A DNA stretch of 64,000 nucleotides, from the NCBI RefSeq assembly GCF_030159955.1, contig NZ_BSNK01000001.1:434001-498000 (forward strand). The letters run 5' to 3'. The position numbers and the translations under genes are program-made. The notes beneath the pieces were generated by a model that worked only from the letters and a program-made list of their open reading frames with translations, searched no databases and was not told the DNA's origin. Shown here piece after piece: positions 56,860 through 64,000 of the stretch (positions within the stretch are counted from its first letter, which is position 1; each line of letters begins with the position of its first letter). This stretch comes from Algimonas ampicilliniresistens (GTDB lineage Bacteria > Pseudomonadota > Alphaproteobacteria > Caulobacterales > Maricaulaceae).

Positions 56860-57874
56860 CTAAAGAGCGTTGATCTCAGCCTCTAGCGCTCCCAAGGAGT
56901 CGATGATCTGCTCCCAACTTGGGCCGTCATCAAAAAGCATCTCGCGCATCTCGCTATAGTCTCGCCGAAGACGCTCGTTCAAATCCGGATTGGGAAGAAG
57001 TCGAAGGTAGGGAGGCCGCGCCGTCTCATAGCTCGCCCACGCCGCTCGAAAGAGACGACTTATGCCGAGCAACGGCTTTTAGAAGATCGAGGTCATCAAG
57101 CGCTTCCGCTTTGATTGGCGTACCCGCCAATGTCGCAAGGTCATAATAATGACGAGACATAGCGCGACCGAGAGCCTTGTTCGGTTTCTGATAGAAAAGC
57201 ATGTGTAAGATCGTGGCCTTTTCCCAGAAGGTTCGCGCGGCACTGAGAACCTTCACCTCGACATCAGGCTCTTCGAAGAGGGCAGGAAGCTGCTCTGCCG
57301 CATAAGGTTTCACCAACCGTGTTTCTGGGGGCAAATGATCAGAGCGCGCCCCGAACTCCAATTTCACTTTGTCCGCTAGGTAATTGCCCGCATGCGTCGT
57401 CAGGCTCGTCGGGTAGTTTAAGATCAGGGTTTGCGGGTCTTCTTCTGAAACTGTGAGATCAATCTTGGAGGAGGGGAGGGCATCAGCCATAGCGCCCGCG
57501 AGCTTGGCCAAGAGACCACCTTGAATCTAGTGCTCAGCGCGCTTGGAGAGCTCTTCAAGCAAGGCCTTACGTCGATAGTTAGACAGCCCATCTCTTGCTG
57601 GATCGCGGTCACCGTCAAAGCCAAGATCGCGGCGGTCCAGACTTAGGTCGATGTCCTCTGAAAAGCGACGAATGACGCCGTAGGCTTTGGACAAAGATGT
57701 ACCGCCCTTGAAGATAAGGCCGGTCTCCATGTCCTGAAGACTGAAGACACGCTTGAGTGTCCAGCAAACCCAAAAGTCCTTCTCAACAATGATTGGGGCC
57801 ACACCCATCCTTGCAGCGGCTCCTAAAAAGAGCTCGGACCGATCCTCAGCGGGTAATTGGGCGATTTCGTCCAT
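56860..57874 (-). pseudogene. AbiEii nucleotidyltransferase toxin, disrupted
   Basis: Three minus-strand pieces together make a full-length AbiEii/AbiGii protein of about 338 codons. Piece 1 (57874-57527) holds the nucleotidyltransferase core FKGGTSLSKAYG and FSEDIDLSL. It ends in an amber stop (57527-57529) with the same frame continuing as IQGGLLAKLAGAMAD. Piece 2 runs to about 57050, where a frameshift occurs (after AVARHKS). Piece 3 (FRAAWASYETARPPYLRLLP) resumes the expected C-terminus and stops at 56860. Length is consistent with a 1-base insertion. In intact AbiE systems this toxin is held by the adjacent AbiEi-like antitoxin; here it is inactive unless readthrough occurs. Confidence 0.85.
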
Positions 57875-57877
57875 ATC

Positions 57878-58473
57878 TTACACAGCTTCAGCGATGCGCT
57901 TAGCGACCGGTTGCATCCAAGCGGGCGCCTTCGTGCTTTGCTTGACGAGATCCTTGGCATCAGACGGGCTGATCTGCTTAGCAACGCGGTGCACAATCTG
58001 ATCATTGAGCCCGTCGCGCCCACATAGCGAAGCGCCTGAAAGACAGTCCCCGCCGTGGTCCCAGCCGCGACGAGGTTCTTAGGCGCTGCCTGCTTTAGCG
58101 TGATGGATGTCTGGCCCACCTGTCGGGTACGGGTCCGTCCATTCGTCAGATAGACAGAGTTCGCCAGGACCTGATTTGTGAGACCCAAAAGGTTAGCGGC
58201 GCGGGACGGGGGGATCTGGAGCTTATGCCCATCCTTTCTGACAATGGCATCTGCGACGTCATCAAGGTTCGGGGAGAGGGGGCCGAAACGAGGGCTGATC
58301 TTCGGGTAATCGTAGACCCCCTGGGAGAGCCGGCGAATTAAGCCGTCCTGGGCAAGCCGCGATAGCGCCTTATCAATGGACGTGCGAGACCCCACCGCCA
58401 GAAAATCTGACGGTGTGAAGACCGAACCACGGTCTTTGCGCTGAATGCGGGATCTGATTGTCGATATCGTCAT
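57878..58473 (-). pseudogene. AbiEi-like (DUF6088) antitoxin, frameshifted
   Basis: The N-terminal part (SVFTPSDFLAVGSRTSIDKALSRLAQDGLIRRLSQGVYDYPK) is the winged helix of DUF6088/AbiEi antitoxins, followed by the antitoxin domain (HKLQIPPSRAANLLGL). After FQALRYVG the frame is lost. One missing base near 58013-58022 (GG in place of GGG) restores RDGLNDQIVHRVAKQ, ending in KRIAEAV with a stop 3 bp before the AbiEii ATG. The open frame as it stands runs wrongly to 57823. DNA binding may survive, toxin neutralisation probably does not. An inverted repeat stands before the gene. Confidence 0.8.
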
Positions 58474-58711: not shown

Positions 58712-59512
58712 ATGGAACTCGAGCCTTTACGAATGCGAAATGGGCAAGGTGTCCTTTATACACGTCGTGCGCCTGTTGTTGCGGCAATTAAACGGGGACT
58801 CAATGACTCGTTCGAAACCCTGCTTGAGCGGGCCAAAATCCGGAACAGACAAGATCCTGATTACGTCCCCTCGGAAGCCTTAGTCTATCATATTCGGCGA
58901 ACGAAGAGCGACAACAGCGAGGCGCGTTTCATCGCACTTCTGGACATAATCAATAAGCGTGTTGCTGACTCCTGTCGTCGGCCAGGTCGTCAGGTCGGAA
59001 ACCAACTCTATGAAGACGCGGAGCTCGCAGAGCTGCGTGAGGCAACTGTCAATCTTGTGATGGAGCTGATCCTTAAGGACCAAGACGGGTATGAGAAGAA
59101 GCTGGATGTCTATGAGTTTGCCTTCGATAAGGCCGTCCGCGCTCGCCGTATTGATCACAAAAGAATGCGCGGCCGACGACCGACGGCGAACGCGCCTATT
59201 CTGGACGAAATCAGCGGAGAGGTTCGTCAGGATGTTGAGGACGCCTTAGCCCGGCTCTCCTCAGGCCAAACCCCTATCGAGAGTAGTCTGGATTGCCGGA
59301 TCGCCTTACGACGTGCGATTGATACATTACCGAGTGATCAACGCGAGGTCGTCGAGCTTTGGATGTCGGGAGTGCAAATTGAGTCGAAAAAGGACGAAGA
59401 ACCCTCCATCGCGACAACGCTGGGATGTTCGATAAGAACTGTCCAAAACAGGCGCAATCGCGCTTTTGCCGCAATGAGAGTGGCGCTGGGGCTGGAGAAT
59501 GATGATGAGTAA
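58712..59512 (+). CDS. sigma-70-like protein (region 4 with divergent region 2)
   Basis: 266 aa. The C-terminal about 75 residues form a sigma region 4: IALRRAIDTLPSDQREVVELW, an unusual insertion (MSGVQIESKKDEEPS), then IATTLGCSIRTVQNRRNRAFAAMRVAL. The central part (ALLDIINKRVADSC ... YEFAFDKAVRARRIDHKRMRGRR) resembles a diverged region 2. It could direct RNA polymerase to defence genes or act as a DNA-binding regulator. First gene of a tightly packed operon: it overlaps the next ORF by 14 bp. Confidence 0.72.
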   Translation: MELEPLRMRNGQGVLYTRRAPVVAAIKRGLNDSFETLLERAKIRNRQDPDYVPSEALVYHIRRTKSDNSEARFIALLDIINKRVADSCRRPGRQVGNQLYEDAELAELREATVNLVMELILKDQDGYEKKLDVYEFAFDKAVRARRIDHKRMRGRRPTANAPILDEISGEVRQDVEDALARLSSGQTPIESSLDCRIALRRAIDTLPSDQREVVELWMSGVQIESKKDEEPSIATTLGCSIRTVQNRRNRAFAAMRVALGLENDDE

Positions 59513-60053
59513 GCGGGACGATGTAATCGATGACTTCTGTGTGGAAACAGACCTGTCACCGGCTGTGCTGCAAACCTTTATCGCGCGGCACCCTGAATAC
59601 ATAGAGGAGCTTCTTGAGCTGTACCATGAATTCGCTATTCTAGAGCTCGACCTGATGGATGCCCATGACGCATCAGAGACCAGTCAAGCCGTCCTCGAAA
59701 CGCAAATGACCCAGAAGGCCTATAACGCCTTGTTTGGCGCGGAAGTCAGAACATTTTCAAAAGATATTCGCTTACCTAGAGGCTTTCTGACGGGATTGAA
59801 TAGCAGCGTCATTGAGTTGCGATCCGTACCGCTGAACTTCCTCAAAGCAATGGCGGCCCGGCTTGATGTGGGCCTTGCTGATCTCTGGTCGGCTATGGTT
59901 CAGGGTAACCGTCAGGCCATCGCCATGAAATCCGATGACAAACCCGGGGGAGCGAAACCGATCAGCTTCGACGAATATATAAACCGGGCGACACTGACCT
60001 CTGAGCAAGAGAAGGTTCTTTCGCACATGATGAGTGATGATGGACCGAATTGA
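59499..60053 (+). CDS. small acidic protein coupled to the sigma-like gene
   Basis: 184 aa; ATG at 59499, 59502 or 59505, all overlapping the sigma-like gene. Acidic N-terminal half ([30 protein letters not shown]) and a segment [43 protein letters not shown] that looks like a small helical regulator domain. No membrane helix. By place (between a sigma-like protein and an ImmA-type peptidase) it is a candidate anti-sigma factor or repressor cleaved by the peptidase, as in ImmA-ImmR pairs. This is inference; no family recognised. It overlaps the peptidase-helicase gene by 20 bp. Confidence 0.65.
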
Positions 60054-63000
60054 GGCCATTCGCCAACGGGCGGCAGCTTTACACGCCGCCGCATGCGAGG
60101 CCGGTGACGAGCCGACTAATCCTTATCTTTTTGTTCTCAAGGAAGCGGACCGCCGCGACATTGAAGTCTCAGCGCGTTCCACTGGCGACCCTCAACTCAA
60201 TGGCGGTCGCGCGACTTTTCAAGCGGATGCAGGTGTCATCCTACACGAGCAAACCGGATCAAGCTTCCTTGATGCCTTTCTGGTCGCCCATGAGATTGGG
60301 CATGATGAGTTTGGGAGTGGAATCGAGCGTCCTCCACTCATGGATATCGATCCGGCTCGCTCAAGCGATCCTGCGCCTGTTGGGGCGGACCGTGTCGTGG
60401 ATTATAGCAGTCAGGCCCGGCAAGAAATTCAAATGGACCTCTTCGCGAGGGAATTTCTTTTCCCTCGCACCCTTGCCTGGACCTGGCATGTCGAAGACGG
60501 CCTCGACGCGGACGAAATCGCGAGGCGGCTTGGAGCCCCTTACGATATGGTTGCGGCGCAGCTGTTTGACGCGCTTTGGCTCCCGCACGTACCCACGAAG
60601 TCAGAAATAAGTACTGGCCCCACGAAACCGCTAAACCCGGAGCAGAGGGCGGCTGCGGAACACCAGGGCGGCGCTTTACTCCTGAAAGCGGGTCCCGGTA
60701 CGGGAAAGACCCAAACTCTTGTGGGTCGGCTCGCCGTTCTGCGTGAGCGAGAGGTTGATCCGGAAGATCTGCTCCTATTGACCTTTTCCAACAAGGCGGC
60801 GGCAGAGATGACGGACCGAGCGATCAAGATCTGGCCGGAGTCCGCTGGGGCAGCCTGGATTGGTACATTTCACTCTTTCGGGCTTGATATTGTGCGCCGG
60901 TTTCATGACCGACTTAACCTGCCCAATCGACCAAAGCTCATCGACACAAGCGAAGCGATCGCCATGCTTGAGGAGGAATTTCCGCGACTGGGTCTGAATT
61001 ACTTCAACGACCTCTGGGATCCGACACATATTCTGAAAGACATTCTGGCCGCCATCTCTCGGGCGAAAGACGAGGTCGTTGATCATAAGGCGTACAGGAA
61101 ATACGCGTTAGCTATGGCGGAAGCCGCTGAATCGACTGAGACGATTGAGGAGGCCGAACGCTGTCTGGAGATTGCGGACGTCTATGACCTCTATGAGACC
61201 CTGAAAAAGGACGCCGGAGCTGTCGACTTTGGCGATCTCGTCGCACTGCCGACGGCGCTTGTTGAAACGGATGCAGAGGTGCGGGCCAGCCTTCAATCCC
61301 GTTACGGACATATTCTTGTCGACGAATATCAGGATGTGAACCGTGCCAGCGTCCGCCTCCTCAAAGCGCTCAAACCTGATGGTGAGAACCTGTGGGTTGT
61401 GGGTGATGCCAAACAATCAATCTACAGGTTTCGGGGCGCGTCACCAGACAGTGTCGCCGCCTTCGCCACGACCGCGTTTCCGGGTGGAACCATCTCGGAG
61501 CTGCGAACGAATTATCGCTCCACTCAATCTATCTGTGACGTGTTCAAGGCCTTTGCGAGAGTTCGGATGGCATCTGCCACAGACTTTGACGTAAATGCCG
61601 CGTCCGAAGAGGTCGGACCGCGTCCACGCTACATTGAACTGAGCTCCAAGGATCACGAGTTGGAGGAATTGGCGGCCCGGATTGAGAAAATTTGCGAGGA
61701 GGGTGCATCCTTCCGCGACCAGGCTGTTCTCTGCAAGGGGAATGACCGTCTTGCAGAGATTGCAGCCGGGCTGGAACAACGCGGCATCCCCGTACTTTTC
61801 TTAGGTCCTCTATTTGATCGTCAGGAGATCAAAGAAGCCCTTTCACTCCTGTCCATGATCATCGATCCACGGGCCATGGGTTTGTCGAGTGTCGCTTCGC
61901 TATCACCCTTTCGGATCAGCATAGATGATCTGGCAAAGATGGTTGATGCGATCCGCCGCGCTAGTCCGGAATCCCCGCTGGACTGGACCCAGGCCGTATC
62001 AGAAACCCGGGACTTCTCAGACGCTTCCCAAGAGGGTGTCGCGAGGCTCCTATCCTGTTTCGAAGGCTTTGAACCGCATGTTCCGCCCTGGCGGGCGCTA
62101 GCGACACTCTATCTCGACAGGACCCGACTTGGCGCACAGCTCGGATTGGCAGCGCGTGAGGGTGAAGCGAACCCAGCGATTGCGATGTGGCAATTGCAAA
62201 ATTTCTTTCGCAATGATTTTGCACGCGGGGAGGGGTATCCAATCCATGAGCTGCTCACGCGCATCCGAAAGCTTGTCATGCTCTCAGATGAGCGCGAGCT
62301 CAGACACCTGCCAGAGGCAGCGCAAACGCTTGATGCGGTCCGATTGCTCACCGTTCATGGCAGCAAGGGACTTGAGTTTCCGGTTCTGCACCTACCTTCG
62401 CTGACGCGCGGCTCTTTAAACCGCTCAGCCAATCAGAGCCGGGGCCTCCCACCACCCGATGGTCTCATCGCTGGGCCTGTCTTTCGAGGTCGAGATGCCT
62501 CGCATGCGGGGCATGAAGATGAGCAACACTGTCTCTTTTTCGTTGGCTTATCACGCGCAGAAGACCAGCTTTACCTCTATTCGCCCCATACAAGCCGTAG
62601 CAAACCGTCTCCATTTCTCGACGATATTGCGGCAACCGTTACATGTGAAACCCCGCTTTCGGAGCCTCCAATACTGGCGGAGCAGGAAGAAGCGTTTGAA
62701 CTCAGTCTCGACGGCAGGCCGCGCCTCTCCCCCTCACAGCTCGCACTTTATCAAAAATGTCCCCGGCGGTTTCTATTCGCCTATGTGCTTGGTATTGGCG
62801 GCCGACGGATGGAAACCCCTCCCATGCAAATGCACCGGGCTGTCCAGGTCGTCATCGATCAGTTGCTCGCCCACCTGAACGACGTACTGAGCCCCGCGGA
62901 ATTGACCGATATTGTCGATCAAGCCTGGGAAGAGCATGGGCCGGTCGAGCATGGCTATGCGTCGAAATATCGGACCATCGCCGACACTCTGATCGCCTTC

Positions 63001-63447
63001 TTGCACTCAATCCGCACGGGGGAAACGCGCAGGCCCCCTCAGACACGCGAAGTGTCACTCGAACATGCCGACATTGTCGTGACAGCCCACGAAGAAATTG
63101 ACGGCGGTGCGCACACAATCTTCCGCCGCATTAAAACCGGACGCAGGACCAGTCAGGCCCTCGAAGGTCTCGATGCGGCAGCCTTTCAGATGGCCGTCGC
63201 TGATCATGGTCATGTCGAATTTGTCTACCTCACCGGAGAAACACGGGAGATGGTGGCCCTGTCGAAACAAAAAATCTCCAACAGGGGAAAGAAAATCGAG
63301 GCGGCGACCAAAGCCTTATCGCTTGGGCAATTCCCCCCAGATCGGGGGCGTCAATGTGCCAGTTGCCCATTCTTTTTCAACTGTACACCCCCGCCAAGTG
63401 GGCACCTTCGAAAAAAAATCGGCGAGCGCTTACCGGTTTCCTCCTAG
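60034..63447 (+). CDS. ImmA/IrrE-type peptidase fused to UvrD-like helicase and degenerate PD-(D/E)XK domain
   Basis: 1137 aa, start at one of three ATGs (60034-60040). Domain order: (1) about 1-190 zinc peptidase with His86-Glu87-Ile-Gly-His90 (VAHEIGH) and [11 protein letters not shown], as in ImmA/IrrE proteins; (2) about 205-850 UvrD/REP helicase with Walker A GPGTGKT (220-226), [13 protein letters not shown], Walker B DEYQD (about 430), [25 protein letters not shown] and [14 protein letters not shown]; (3) about 890-1137 AddB/Cas4-like nuclease fold starting [16 protein letters not shown] and ending with [10 protein letters not shown] (Cys1108, 1111, 1117), which with the first Cys could bind an iron-sulfur cluster. 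The nuclease acidic residues seem lost (RRIKTGR in place of a DxK motif), so it may only bind DNA. Likely an anti-phage sensor/effector. Confidence 0.85.
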
Positions 63448-63514
63448 GCTGACGATTGTCCTTGTGAACACGCTGGCAATGGGCCGGCGACACAGACCTA
63501 GAAGGACAAAAATC

Positions 63515-64000
63515 ATGACGGCAACCGCCCAAACATCCCAATTCAAAGTCAGGATCGCTGATACGACGCTCAAATTTCGATCCTATACCATTGACGACCC
63601 GAAGCCGCTTGGACGGCAGCTGATCGAAGCCGTTGGAGGCCATCCTGTCGAGGAACATGTGGCCTTTGCCATTCTTCCCAATGGCGATTTCGAAGACATT
63701 CGGCTCGACGAGGGCTTTGACCTCAGAGGTCGCGGGGTCGAGAAGGTCCTCGTGGCCCGCTCGGACCGGAGTTTCCGGCTGAAAGTCGATGACGCCGACG
63801 TCGAGTGGCCCCATGCCTGTATTAGTGGGTTCGTCCTGCGCAAGCTTGCCAAGCTGGCGGAAAACTACTCCCTTTGGCAGGAACGCCCAGGCCAGCATGA
63901 CCGAAAGATTGAGAATGACGATATCATCAACCTGGATGAACCGGGCGTTGAACGGTTCATTTCTCTGATCGATCAGACCACGGAGGGCGACGCTCTACCC
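63515..64000 (+). CDS. multi-ubiquitin domain protein (3' end outside window)
   Basis: An ATG at 63515, 67 bp after the helicase-gene stop and preceded by AGAAGGA, opens 162 codons without a stop up to the window edge. The translation shows two ubiquitin-like repeats. The first runs from FKVRIADTTLKFRSYTI to FDLRGRGVEKVLV (about 10-85), the second from SFRLKVDDADVEWP to NLDEPGVERFISL (about 86-150). The ending GVERFISL and the IDG-like first strand match the bacterial multi-ubiquitin family, whose genes are normally followed by E1-like ThiF, E2-like and JAB-peptidase genes of anti-phage conjugation operons. These partners are not in view. Function is inferred from family and position. Confidence 0.72.
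   Translation, partial: MTATAQTSQFKVRIADTTLKFRSYTIDDPKPLGRQLIEAVGGHPVEEHVAFAILPNGDFEDIRLDEGFDLRGRGVEKVLVARSDRSFRLKVDDADVEWPHACISGFVLRKLAKLAENYSLWQERPGQHDRKIENDDIINLDEPGVERFISLIDQTTEGDALP

What the first reader, a model, noticed from the sequence alone, without database searches (positions are those of the whole stretch)
58712..64000. Probable ubiquitin-like defence operon starting at the right edge, coupled to sigma-like and ImmA-helicase genes
A tightly packed row (overlaps of 14 and 20 bp, then a 67-bp gap) of a sigma-like protein, a small acidic protein, an ImmA-UvrD fusion and a protein with two ubiquitin-like repeats lies in an island with other defence genes. Bacterial multi-ubiquitin proteins normally belong to E1/E2/JAB conjugation operons. 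The combination with a sigma-like regulator and a peptidase-helicase suggests a regulated system where a peptidase senses a signal, the sigma-like factor turns on genes, and a ubiquitin-like tag is attached to a target.
Basis: partly seen in the sequence, partly recalled or inferred. Interest (0 to 1): 0.88.

Follow-up and report, generated by a model that had tools for sequence, protein, structure and literature searches.

The report
Sigma-switched bacterial ubiquitin-like conjugation operon
Next to a bacterial operon that resembles the ubiquitin-tagging machinery of our own cells sits a three-gene control unit (a transcription starter, a small partner protein and a peptidase-helicase) together with what looks like its own dedicated promoter, suggesting a DNA-damage or phage-triggered switch for protein tagging that can be tested directly.

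Summary
The frame at 63515 matches Multi_ubiq twice and ends in Prok-E2_E; beyond 64000 follow a JAB-E1 fusion and DUF6527, closest among solved structures to Citrobacter Bub proteins.

The sigma - small protein - ImmA/UvrD trio is a real module. It, or part of it, lies with 48 of 80 loci fetched by the Ubl-E2 protein. In 23 plasmid regions found from the helicase alone, Ubl genes are directly downstream in 21, divergent in 1, beyond an insertion in 1. Partner operons differ in type.

New: a two-box element, TWCCGGWT-N13/14-CGATT, precedes Ubl in 53 of 66 module loci (dinucleotide shuffles mean 2.2, maximum 7); under one stricter rule, 51 of 70 with and 0 of 32 without the module. Box two reads TTCGCT in one sigma clade. 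The helicase's nuclease-like domain has lost D/E-x-K.

Best model: the peptidase-helicase senses DNA and relieves the small protein's hold on an ECF-like sigma, which transcribes the Ubl operon. Sensing, cleavage and defence are inferred.

The parts
58712..59512 (+). ECF-like sigma factor, 266 aa
59499..60053 (+). small acidic partner protein, 184 aa; conserved N-terminal helical part, possible HTH in the middle, conserved tail; proposed anti-sigma or repressor and proposed peptidase substrate
60037..63447 (+). ImmA/IrrE (M78) peptidase - UvrD helicase - PD-(D/E)xK-like domain with four cysteines, D/E-x-K lost (GTG start at 60034 also possible)
   Evidence: Pfam; HExxH, acidic ligand region, Walker A and B kept; RRIKTG at the nuclease motif
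63431..63458 (+). promoter-like two-box element TACCGGTTTCCTCCTAGGCTGACGATTG, spacer 14; spans the helicase stop codon 63445-63447; second box ends 56 bp before the Ubl ATG
   Evidence: one of two matches of the strict pattern in the whole genome
63515..64000 (+). two Multi_ubiq domains of the Ubl-E2 fusion (BubA+BubB-like); the gene runs on to 64369 outside the window with Prok-E2_E; then JAB-E1 64375-65757 (BubCD-like) and DUF6527 65759-66130

Best explanation
This is a Bub-type bacterial ubiquitin-like conjugation operon (Ubl-E2 fusion, JAB-E1 fusion, DUF6527) under its own three-gene switch. The first gene is an ECF-like sigma factor that reads a dedicated promoter (TWCCGGWT-N13/14-CGATT) just before the Ubl gene. 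In the resting cell the small acidic protein keeps the sigma inactive, or blocks the promoter. The third protein joins an M78 peptidase to a UvrD motor and a catalytically dead nuclease-like domain with four cysteines. It most likely recognises single-stranded or broken DNA made during phage growth or DNA damage, and then cleaves the small protein. Freed sigma transcribes the Ubl operon, which tags target proteins; JAB and DUF6527 process or remove tags. Shown by sequence: anatomy, conserved linkage, conservation of the element, change of the element with the sigma clade, loss of D/E-x-K. Inferred: sigma-promoter recognition, anti-sigma role, DNA signal, cleavage, tagging, defence.
For: Gene content and similarity to BubCD E 2.4e-25, BubB E 7.7e-15 with shared QRWSRH and multi-ubiquitin proteins. 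Module linkage: 48 of 80 Ubl-selected loci hold the module or part of it. Among hits not selected for Ubl, Ubl genes stand with the helicase in 23 of 23 plasmid regions (21 directly downstream, 1 divergent, 1 beyond an insertion) and with 4 of 4 new strong small-protein hits in sampled genomes (G266, G340, G373, G778). Element: 53 of 66 module loci; mononucleotide shuffles mean 0.79, maximum 4; dinucleotide shuffles mean 2.2, maximum 7; 51 of 70 with against 0 of 32 without the module. It is kept before Ubl where the helicase lies elsewhere (L029) or is absent (L037). Second box TTCGCT in 7 of 8 sigmas of one clade. Sigma-like fold. D/E-x-K lost in the 40 aligned rows that reach it; a control protein keeps DYKTG. 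Precedent: the M78 peptidases PprI and CapP are activated by ssDNA to cleave regulators (passages of PMC10904395, and PMC13373217).
Confidence: 0.66

Rival explanations
1. CapH/CapP-like variant: the small protein is a DNA-binding repressor at the Ubl promoter rather than an anti-sigma; the M78 domain cleaves it on ssDNA, and the sigma only sets promoter specificity.
For: Possible HTH in residues 67-134; known association of CapH+CapP with Bub operons (passage of PMC13373217) and ssDNA-activated CapP and PprI.
Against: No conserved inverted repeat found upstream of sigma (best arms 5.5 bp on average, shuffles 5.4); the region before Ubl was not searched for one. CapH-type systems have no sigma gene (recalled). 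HTH evidence weak.
Confidence: 0.25
2. ImmA-UvrD is an effector or a Ubl target, not a sensor: the tag or the helicase acts on phage DNA and the sigma module merely co-expresses it.
For: Intact helicase motifs; the helicase core matches PADLOC GajB and RTasHel models, families of defence systems (role recalled).
Against: Nuclease D/E-x-K lost in the 40 aligned rows that reach it; the element lies after the helicase gene in most loci, so the helicase is not among the switched genes; L037 keeps sigma, small protein, element and Ubl operon without the helicase.
Confidence: 0.15
3. The two-box element is not a promoter but a conserved RNA or protein-binding site of the Ubl operon.
For: No transcript mapped; no RNA-family search was run on it.
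Against: Absent from 32 of 32 Ubl operons without the module under the rule; second box follows the sigma clade; spacing 13 or 14 in 50 of 53.
Confidence: 0.08
4. Ordinary defence-island hitch-hiking without functional link.
For: The neighbourhood holds an AbiEi-like gene and a serine recombinase.
Against: Linkage across several Ubl operon types, across Alpha-, Beta- and Gammaproteobacteria and a cyanobacterial plasmid; orientation variants keep the pair together (L029, L132).
Confidence: 0.01

Closest known systems
Bub (bacterial ubiquitination-like) operons; Citrobacter BubB and BubCD structures 9eae, 9ea4
   Same: Multi-ubiquitin Ubl, Prok-E2_E with QRWSRH, JAB-E1 fusion.
   Different: Ubl and E2 are fused here; [quoted passage not shown]
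Bil operons (BilABCD)
   Same: Relatives L111, L112 and many plasmid loci carry the same three-gene module before four genes in the Ubl, DUF7665 (E2-like by my reading), JAB, E1 order that a review describes for Bil. One multi-ubiquitin match of the window Ubl is deposited as 'Ubl-BilA' (8u38_A, E 4.7e-27).
   Different: The window's own operon has a Prok-E2_E domain without a conserved cysteine and a JAB-E1 fusion. The E1 of L111 stays below the ThiF cut-off (16.1 of 28.1 bits).
CapH+CapP and DdrO-PprI peptidase-repressor pairs
   Same: M78 peptidase next to a small regulator; ssDNA activation known for PprI and CapP.
   Different: Here the peptidase is fused to a UvrD helicase and a dead nuclease domain, and a sigma factor is added.
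ECF sigma factors with anti-sigma partners
   Same: Predicted region 4 fold and a helical part that aligns to region 2; two-box promoter-like element; neighbouring small protein.
   Different: No hit above the NCBIfam sigma cut-offs for the window copy; extra N-terminal helices; a peptidase-helicase as third partner.

Membership tests
Bub-type Ubl conjugation operon | Multi-ubiquitin Ubl protein | tested here: met
   PF14452 twice, 51.7 and 44.9 bits, cut-off 24.5
Bub-type Ubl conjugation operon | E2 of the BubB kind | tested here: met
   Prok-E2_E E 2.4e-45; 9eae_C E 7.7e-15 with QRWSRH shared; WQRWSRHN invariant in 81 of 82 rows, the remaining row gapped there
Bub-type Ubl conjugation operon | JAB-E1 fusion of the BubCD kind | tested here: met
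   Prok-JAB and ThiF above cut-off; 9ea4_A E 2.4e-25; E25, H96, H98, S106, D109 conserved in at least 96% of 78 rows
Bub-type Ubl conjugation operon | Conjugation of the Ubl to targets | not testable with these tools
   Needs biochemistry; the defining papers were not held
Bil (BilABCD) | E2 with catalytic cysteine in a CEHH motif (review passage) | tested here: not met
   No conserved cysteine in the 82 aligned E2 rows of the window's family
ECF-like sigma factor | Region 4 HTH | tested here: met
   Sigma70_r4_2 above cut-off; 2h27_A rmsd 1.9 over 67 residues
ECF-like sigma factor | Region 2 | tested here: inconclusive
   Structural alignments span residues 52-261 (1or7_A, 145 residues, rmsd 12.6); no Pfam region 2 match in the window copy; relative L112 passes the Sigma70_ECF cut-off (22.8, cut-off 21.1); relative L111 covers 4-164 of 165 positions of TIGR02937 at 37.0 bits, cut-off 42.9
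CapH+CapP | M78 peptidase activated by ssDNA that cleaves an adjacent HTH regulator | not testable with these tools
   M78 domain and active-site motif present; activation and cleavage need experiments
Active PD-(D/E)xK nuclease | D/E-x-K catalytic motif | tested here: not met
   R/Q/K-R/K-I/V/L-R/K-T/S-G at that place in 40 of 41 aligned rows, one row gapped there; a neighbour protein in L130 has DYKTG. A looser word search over 71 pieces gave one D/E-x-K-T/S-G, which lies elsewhere in that protein

The most novel reading that the evidence does not exclude
A new class of immune controller: a helicase-coupled metallopeptidase that reads DNA damage through a dead AddB/Cas4-like nuclease domain and releases a dedicated ECF-like sigma factor whose only job is one promoter, that of a ubiquitin-like conjugation operon; the same controller has been joined to several different arrangements of Ubl operons (Bub-like and Bil-like), making it a general switch for bacterial ubiquitin-like tagging.
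Probability: 0.5. Interest if true: 0.87.

Novelty: new variant of a known kind. Interest (0 to 1): 0.78.

Why it matters
Bacterial ubiquitin-like systems are relatives of eukaryotic ubiquitination. For what turns Bub operons on, the one paper I could search names three controllers, all acting through repressors (passages of PMC13373217). A sigma-driven switch with a named promoter, a candidate inhibitor and a candidate DNA-sensing protease would make the question 'what triggers bacterial tagging' testable with a reporter plasmid. It also shows one control module shared by different kinds of Ubl operon, and an unusual protein fusion (peptidase - helicase - dead nuclease) that looks built as a sensor.

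Tried and rejected

Literature: ten searches (listings only, and one search was useless because its terms were too general) gave no paper that describes this module. The papers that define Bub and Bil (PMC12145246, PMC12885553, PMC11476048) were not held, so a description there is possible. Passages only were seen of PMC13373217, PMC1779556, PMC11354881, PMC10904395 and PMC10097602.

Weak points of the counts: the consensus was chosen after looking at the sequences, and the box variants and TTCGCT likewise; one search is the only test on loci fetched later, and one of its six (L153) is nearly the same as L144. The region is set by the opening of the frame and can miss the true upstream region (it misses the window's own element, and for L026 it lies far from the Ubl part). 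Loci are related, so the counts are not independent events.
Full report
OBSERVATION. Pfam finds sigma region 4 in the first, nothing above cut-off in the second, and M78 peptidase, UvrD and PDDEXK_1 in the third. The window is G000:C1:434001-498000 and the genome continues. The frame at 63515 holds two Multi_ubiq domains (51.7 and 44.9 bits, cut-off 24.5) and ends at 64369 with a Prok-E2_E domain. Next are a Prok-JAB + ThiF fusion (64375-65757) and DUF6527 (65759-66130), then two small genes without a family above cut-off, DUF2924 and a serine recombinase.

WHAT THE UBL OPERON IS. The JAB-E1 protein matches Citrobacter BubCD (9ea4_A, E 2.4e-25), the E2 part matches BubB (9eae_C, E 7.7e-15), and the Ubl part matches multi-ubiquitin proteins (9d59_A, E 1.1e-29; also 8u38_A, deposited as 'Ubl-BilA', E 4.7e-27). 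In 82 aligned E2 rows no cysteine is conserved, but WQRWSRHN is invariant in 81, the last row being gapped there; the BubB alignment keeps QRWSRH. E25, H96, H98, S106 and D109 of the JAB part and four cysteines (342, 345, 438, 441) of the E1 part are conserved in at least 96% of 78 rows. I recall, without having read it here, that Bub pathways use an oxyester step; an invariant serine without a conserved cysteine would fit. The Ubl-E2 protein is absent from the 60 relatives sampled, 18 of them of the same genus, apart from one weak partial hit in another family (E 1.3e-4; 54 of the 61 genomes searched are at least 90% complete). This fits horizontal arrival.

THE THREE-GENE MODULE IS REAL. The Ubl-E2 protein brought 80 loci from one scan (141 candidates confirmed, best 80 kept). 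With iterated profiles, 47 of 80 hold the ImmA-UvrD family and one more (L037) holds sigma and small protein without it; 32 of 80 hold none. By my count of the table, 38 of the 47 have sigma, small protein, helicase, Ubl, JAB-E1 and DUF6527 in that order on one strand (in L032 the helicase is in two frames); 7 have a contig end within 3 kb on the left and show no sigma or small protein (L008, L011, L018, L033, L036, L041, L049); L056 ends before DUF6527; L029 has the module convergent behind the operon. L023 and L024 are near-identical.

TESTS NOT SELECTED FOR UBL. The small-protein profile hits 7 of 385 Alphaproteobacteria sampled, five strongly (G000, G065, G266, G340, G373), and 6 of 369 genomes of the class of G441, two strongly (G441, G778). 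The four that are new (G266, G340, G373, G778) all have a Ubl operon directly after the helicase. The helicase protein hits 166 plasmid records, 84 of them over at least 80% of its length; a relative's helicase hits 216, 79 over at least 80%. I fetched 23 regions, chosen for diversity and not at random: Ubl genes follow directly in 21, lie divergently in L132, and in L134 a Ubl gene lies about 6 kb on, beyond an IS66-marked insertion. L153 is nearly the same as L144. Among 60 rows spread down the ranking, matches below about 31% identity cover only the helicase core; two at 33% and one at 32% cover 77-88%; two short, more similar pieces (40% and 57%) cover a third or less. Not all of these were looked at.

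DIFFERENT UBL OPERONS, SAME MODULE. Arrangements seen, by similarity to the named examples: Ubl-E2 / JAB-E1 / DUF6527 (window, L129, L149, L150); Multi_ubiq / DUF6791-ThiF / DUF6527 (L110 by Pfam; L127, L130, L133, L144, L148, L153); small Ubl / DUF7665 / JAB / E1 (L111 by Pfam; L112, L131, L135, L137-L142, L151, L152); Multi_ubiq / unassigned gene or annotated E2 / ThiF (L136, L143); Multi_ubiq / JAB-like / unassigned gene (L145). The third arrangement has the gene order that a review describes for BilABCD (passage of PMC11354881). Its DUF7665 protein in L111 shows C-x5-E-x-H, as in the CEHH motif described there, but conservation was not tested; its E1 lies below the ThiF cut-off and its Ubl has no Pfam match.

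THE ELEMENT. Between helicase and Ubl gene lies TWCCGGWT-N13/14-CGATT(G/A). With box 1 TTCCGGTT (up to 2 mismatches), box 2 CGATTG (up to 1) and spacer 10-17 it is found in 53 of 66 loci; spacer 14 in 32, 13 in 18, 15 in 2, 12 in 1. Of 100 mononucleotide shuffles the mean is 0.79 and the maximum 4; of 200 dinucleotide shuffles 2.2 and 7. With one uniform rule (400 bp around the opening of the Ubl frame, at most 2 mismatches in all, spacer 13-15) it is in 51 of 70 operons with the module or part of it and 0 of 32 without; at 1 mismatch 29 and 0; at 3 mismatches 59 and 2. Under the looser rule, 3 of those 32 have a poor match with other spacers. L029 and L037 keep the element directly before Ubl although no helicase lies upstream, and L134 keeps it in front of the insertion. 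L132 has neither element nor a detectable sigma. Of six loci fetched after the motif was defined, four have it within 2 mismatches and two only at 3; one of the four (L153) is nearly L144, so 3 of 5 are new. In the window it is 63431-63458 and spans the helicase stop codon. The strict pattern occurs twice in the genome; the second place was not examined, and the reversed control pattern occurs once.

THE ELEMENT FOLLOWS THE SIGMA. In a tree of 61 sigma proteins one well-supported clade of eight (L030, L047, L053, L055, L056, L111, L112, L135) has TTCGCT at the second box in seven, always with spacer 13, and no element in L135. Of the other 53, 51 have CGATT(G/A) with at most 2 mismatches in all; L032 and L139 have nothing better than 3 mismatches. 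The program, given also those two weak labels, needs 3 changes on the tree, shuffled labels 8.7, as low in 0 of 200; it warns that several rows have long branches, L139 and L135 among them. The seven include both Ubl-E2 operons and Bil-like operons. The TTCGCT variant was noticed by eye before it was counted.

THE PROTEINS. Sigma: model mean pLDDT 79; the 50 listed structural matches come, by title, from sigma factors or RNA polymerase/transcription complexes, region 4 at rmsd 1.7-4.1 over about 60-70 residues, wider alignments over about 52-261 with large rmsd. Foldseek by itself ranks SigW first at E 0.018. Small protein: model pLDDT 75, long N-terminal helices, weak HTH-like middle. ImmA-UvrD: in the rows that reach them HExxH, the acidic ligand region and the Walker motifs are kept; at the nuclease motif 40 of 41 aligned rows read R/Q/K-R/K-I/V/L-R/K-T/S-G and the last is gapped, while a neighbouring nuclease-family protein in L130 has DYKTG; the four cysteines are kept in nearly all rows.

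HOW IT MOST LIKELY WORKS. The sigma is made with its small partner and the peptidase-helicase from one overlapping gene set. At rest the partner holds the sigma. Damaged or phage DNA engages the UvrD motor and the dead nuclease domain; the M78 domain then cleaves the partner, by analogy with PprI and CapP, which ssDNA activates (passages of PMC10904395, and PMC13373217). Free sigma starts transcription at the element and the Ubl enzymes are made. The gene overlap and the element are read from sequence; the rest is inference.

COMPARISON AND NOVELTY. PMC13373217 reports 544 Bub operons, 219 with CapW or CapH+CapP and 59 with CapK+CapS, and says Bub has not been shown to protect against phage (passages); ImmA and helicase do not occur in its main text. 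The 2006 survey PMC1779556 has no occurrence of helicase, sigma factor or UvrD. Ten literature searches found no description of the module, but three defining papers were not held. I file the operon as a Bub-type system (new member) with a new kind of controller, overall a new variant of a known kind.

Noticed in passing
window 57026-58473, minus strand: AbiEi-like gene (PADLOC E 1.1e-53) next to pieces that look like AbiEii in two frames (by eye only), which look broken; annotated AbiEii/DUF6088 pairs also stand directly upstream of the sigma gene in L129 and L130.
   Followed up: partly
L002 11698-13896 (window 67698-69896, outside the window); also L007, L010, L111: DUF2924 gene plus large serine recombinase close to the Ubl operon; relatives of the pair lie near the module in these other loci, so it may be the carrier element.
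   Followed up: partly
L131, L136, L140, L141, L142, L145: A DNA repair exonuclease (SbcD-type) with an AAA/SMC/YhaN-type ATPase is annotated near the module and Ubl operon in these plasmids.
   Followed up: no
L145 2354-4726 minus strand: A second Ubl operon of another type (multiubiquitin, ThiF, DUF6527) lies divergently upstream of the module; no good element was found before it.
   Followed up: partly
L138, L140, L141 upstream of sigma: Good copies of the two-box element also before the sigma gene, suggesting autoactivation in this subgroup only.
   Followed up: no
L150, L142, L134: Interrupted modules: in-frame stop in the helicase, IS256 in the sigma gene, IS66-marked insertion between helicase and Ubl gene.
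   Followed up: no
L002 10149-11051 (window 66149-67051, outside the window): Two small genes after DUF6527 without any family above cut-off and without relatives in the 80 compared loci.
   Followed up: no
L140 4128-5295 and L141 4157-5210: A WYL-domain and a WGR-domain protein are annotated upstream of the sigma gene; CapW, a WYL protein, is another known Bub controller.
   Followed up: no
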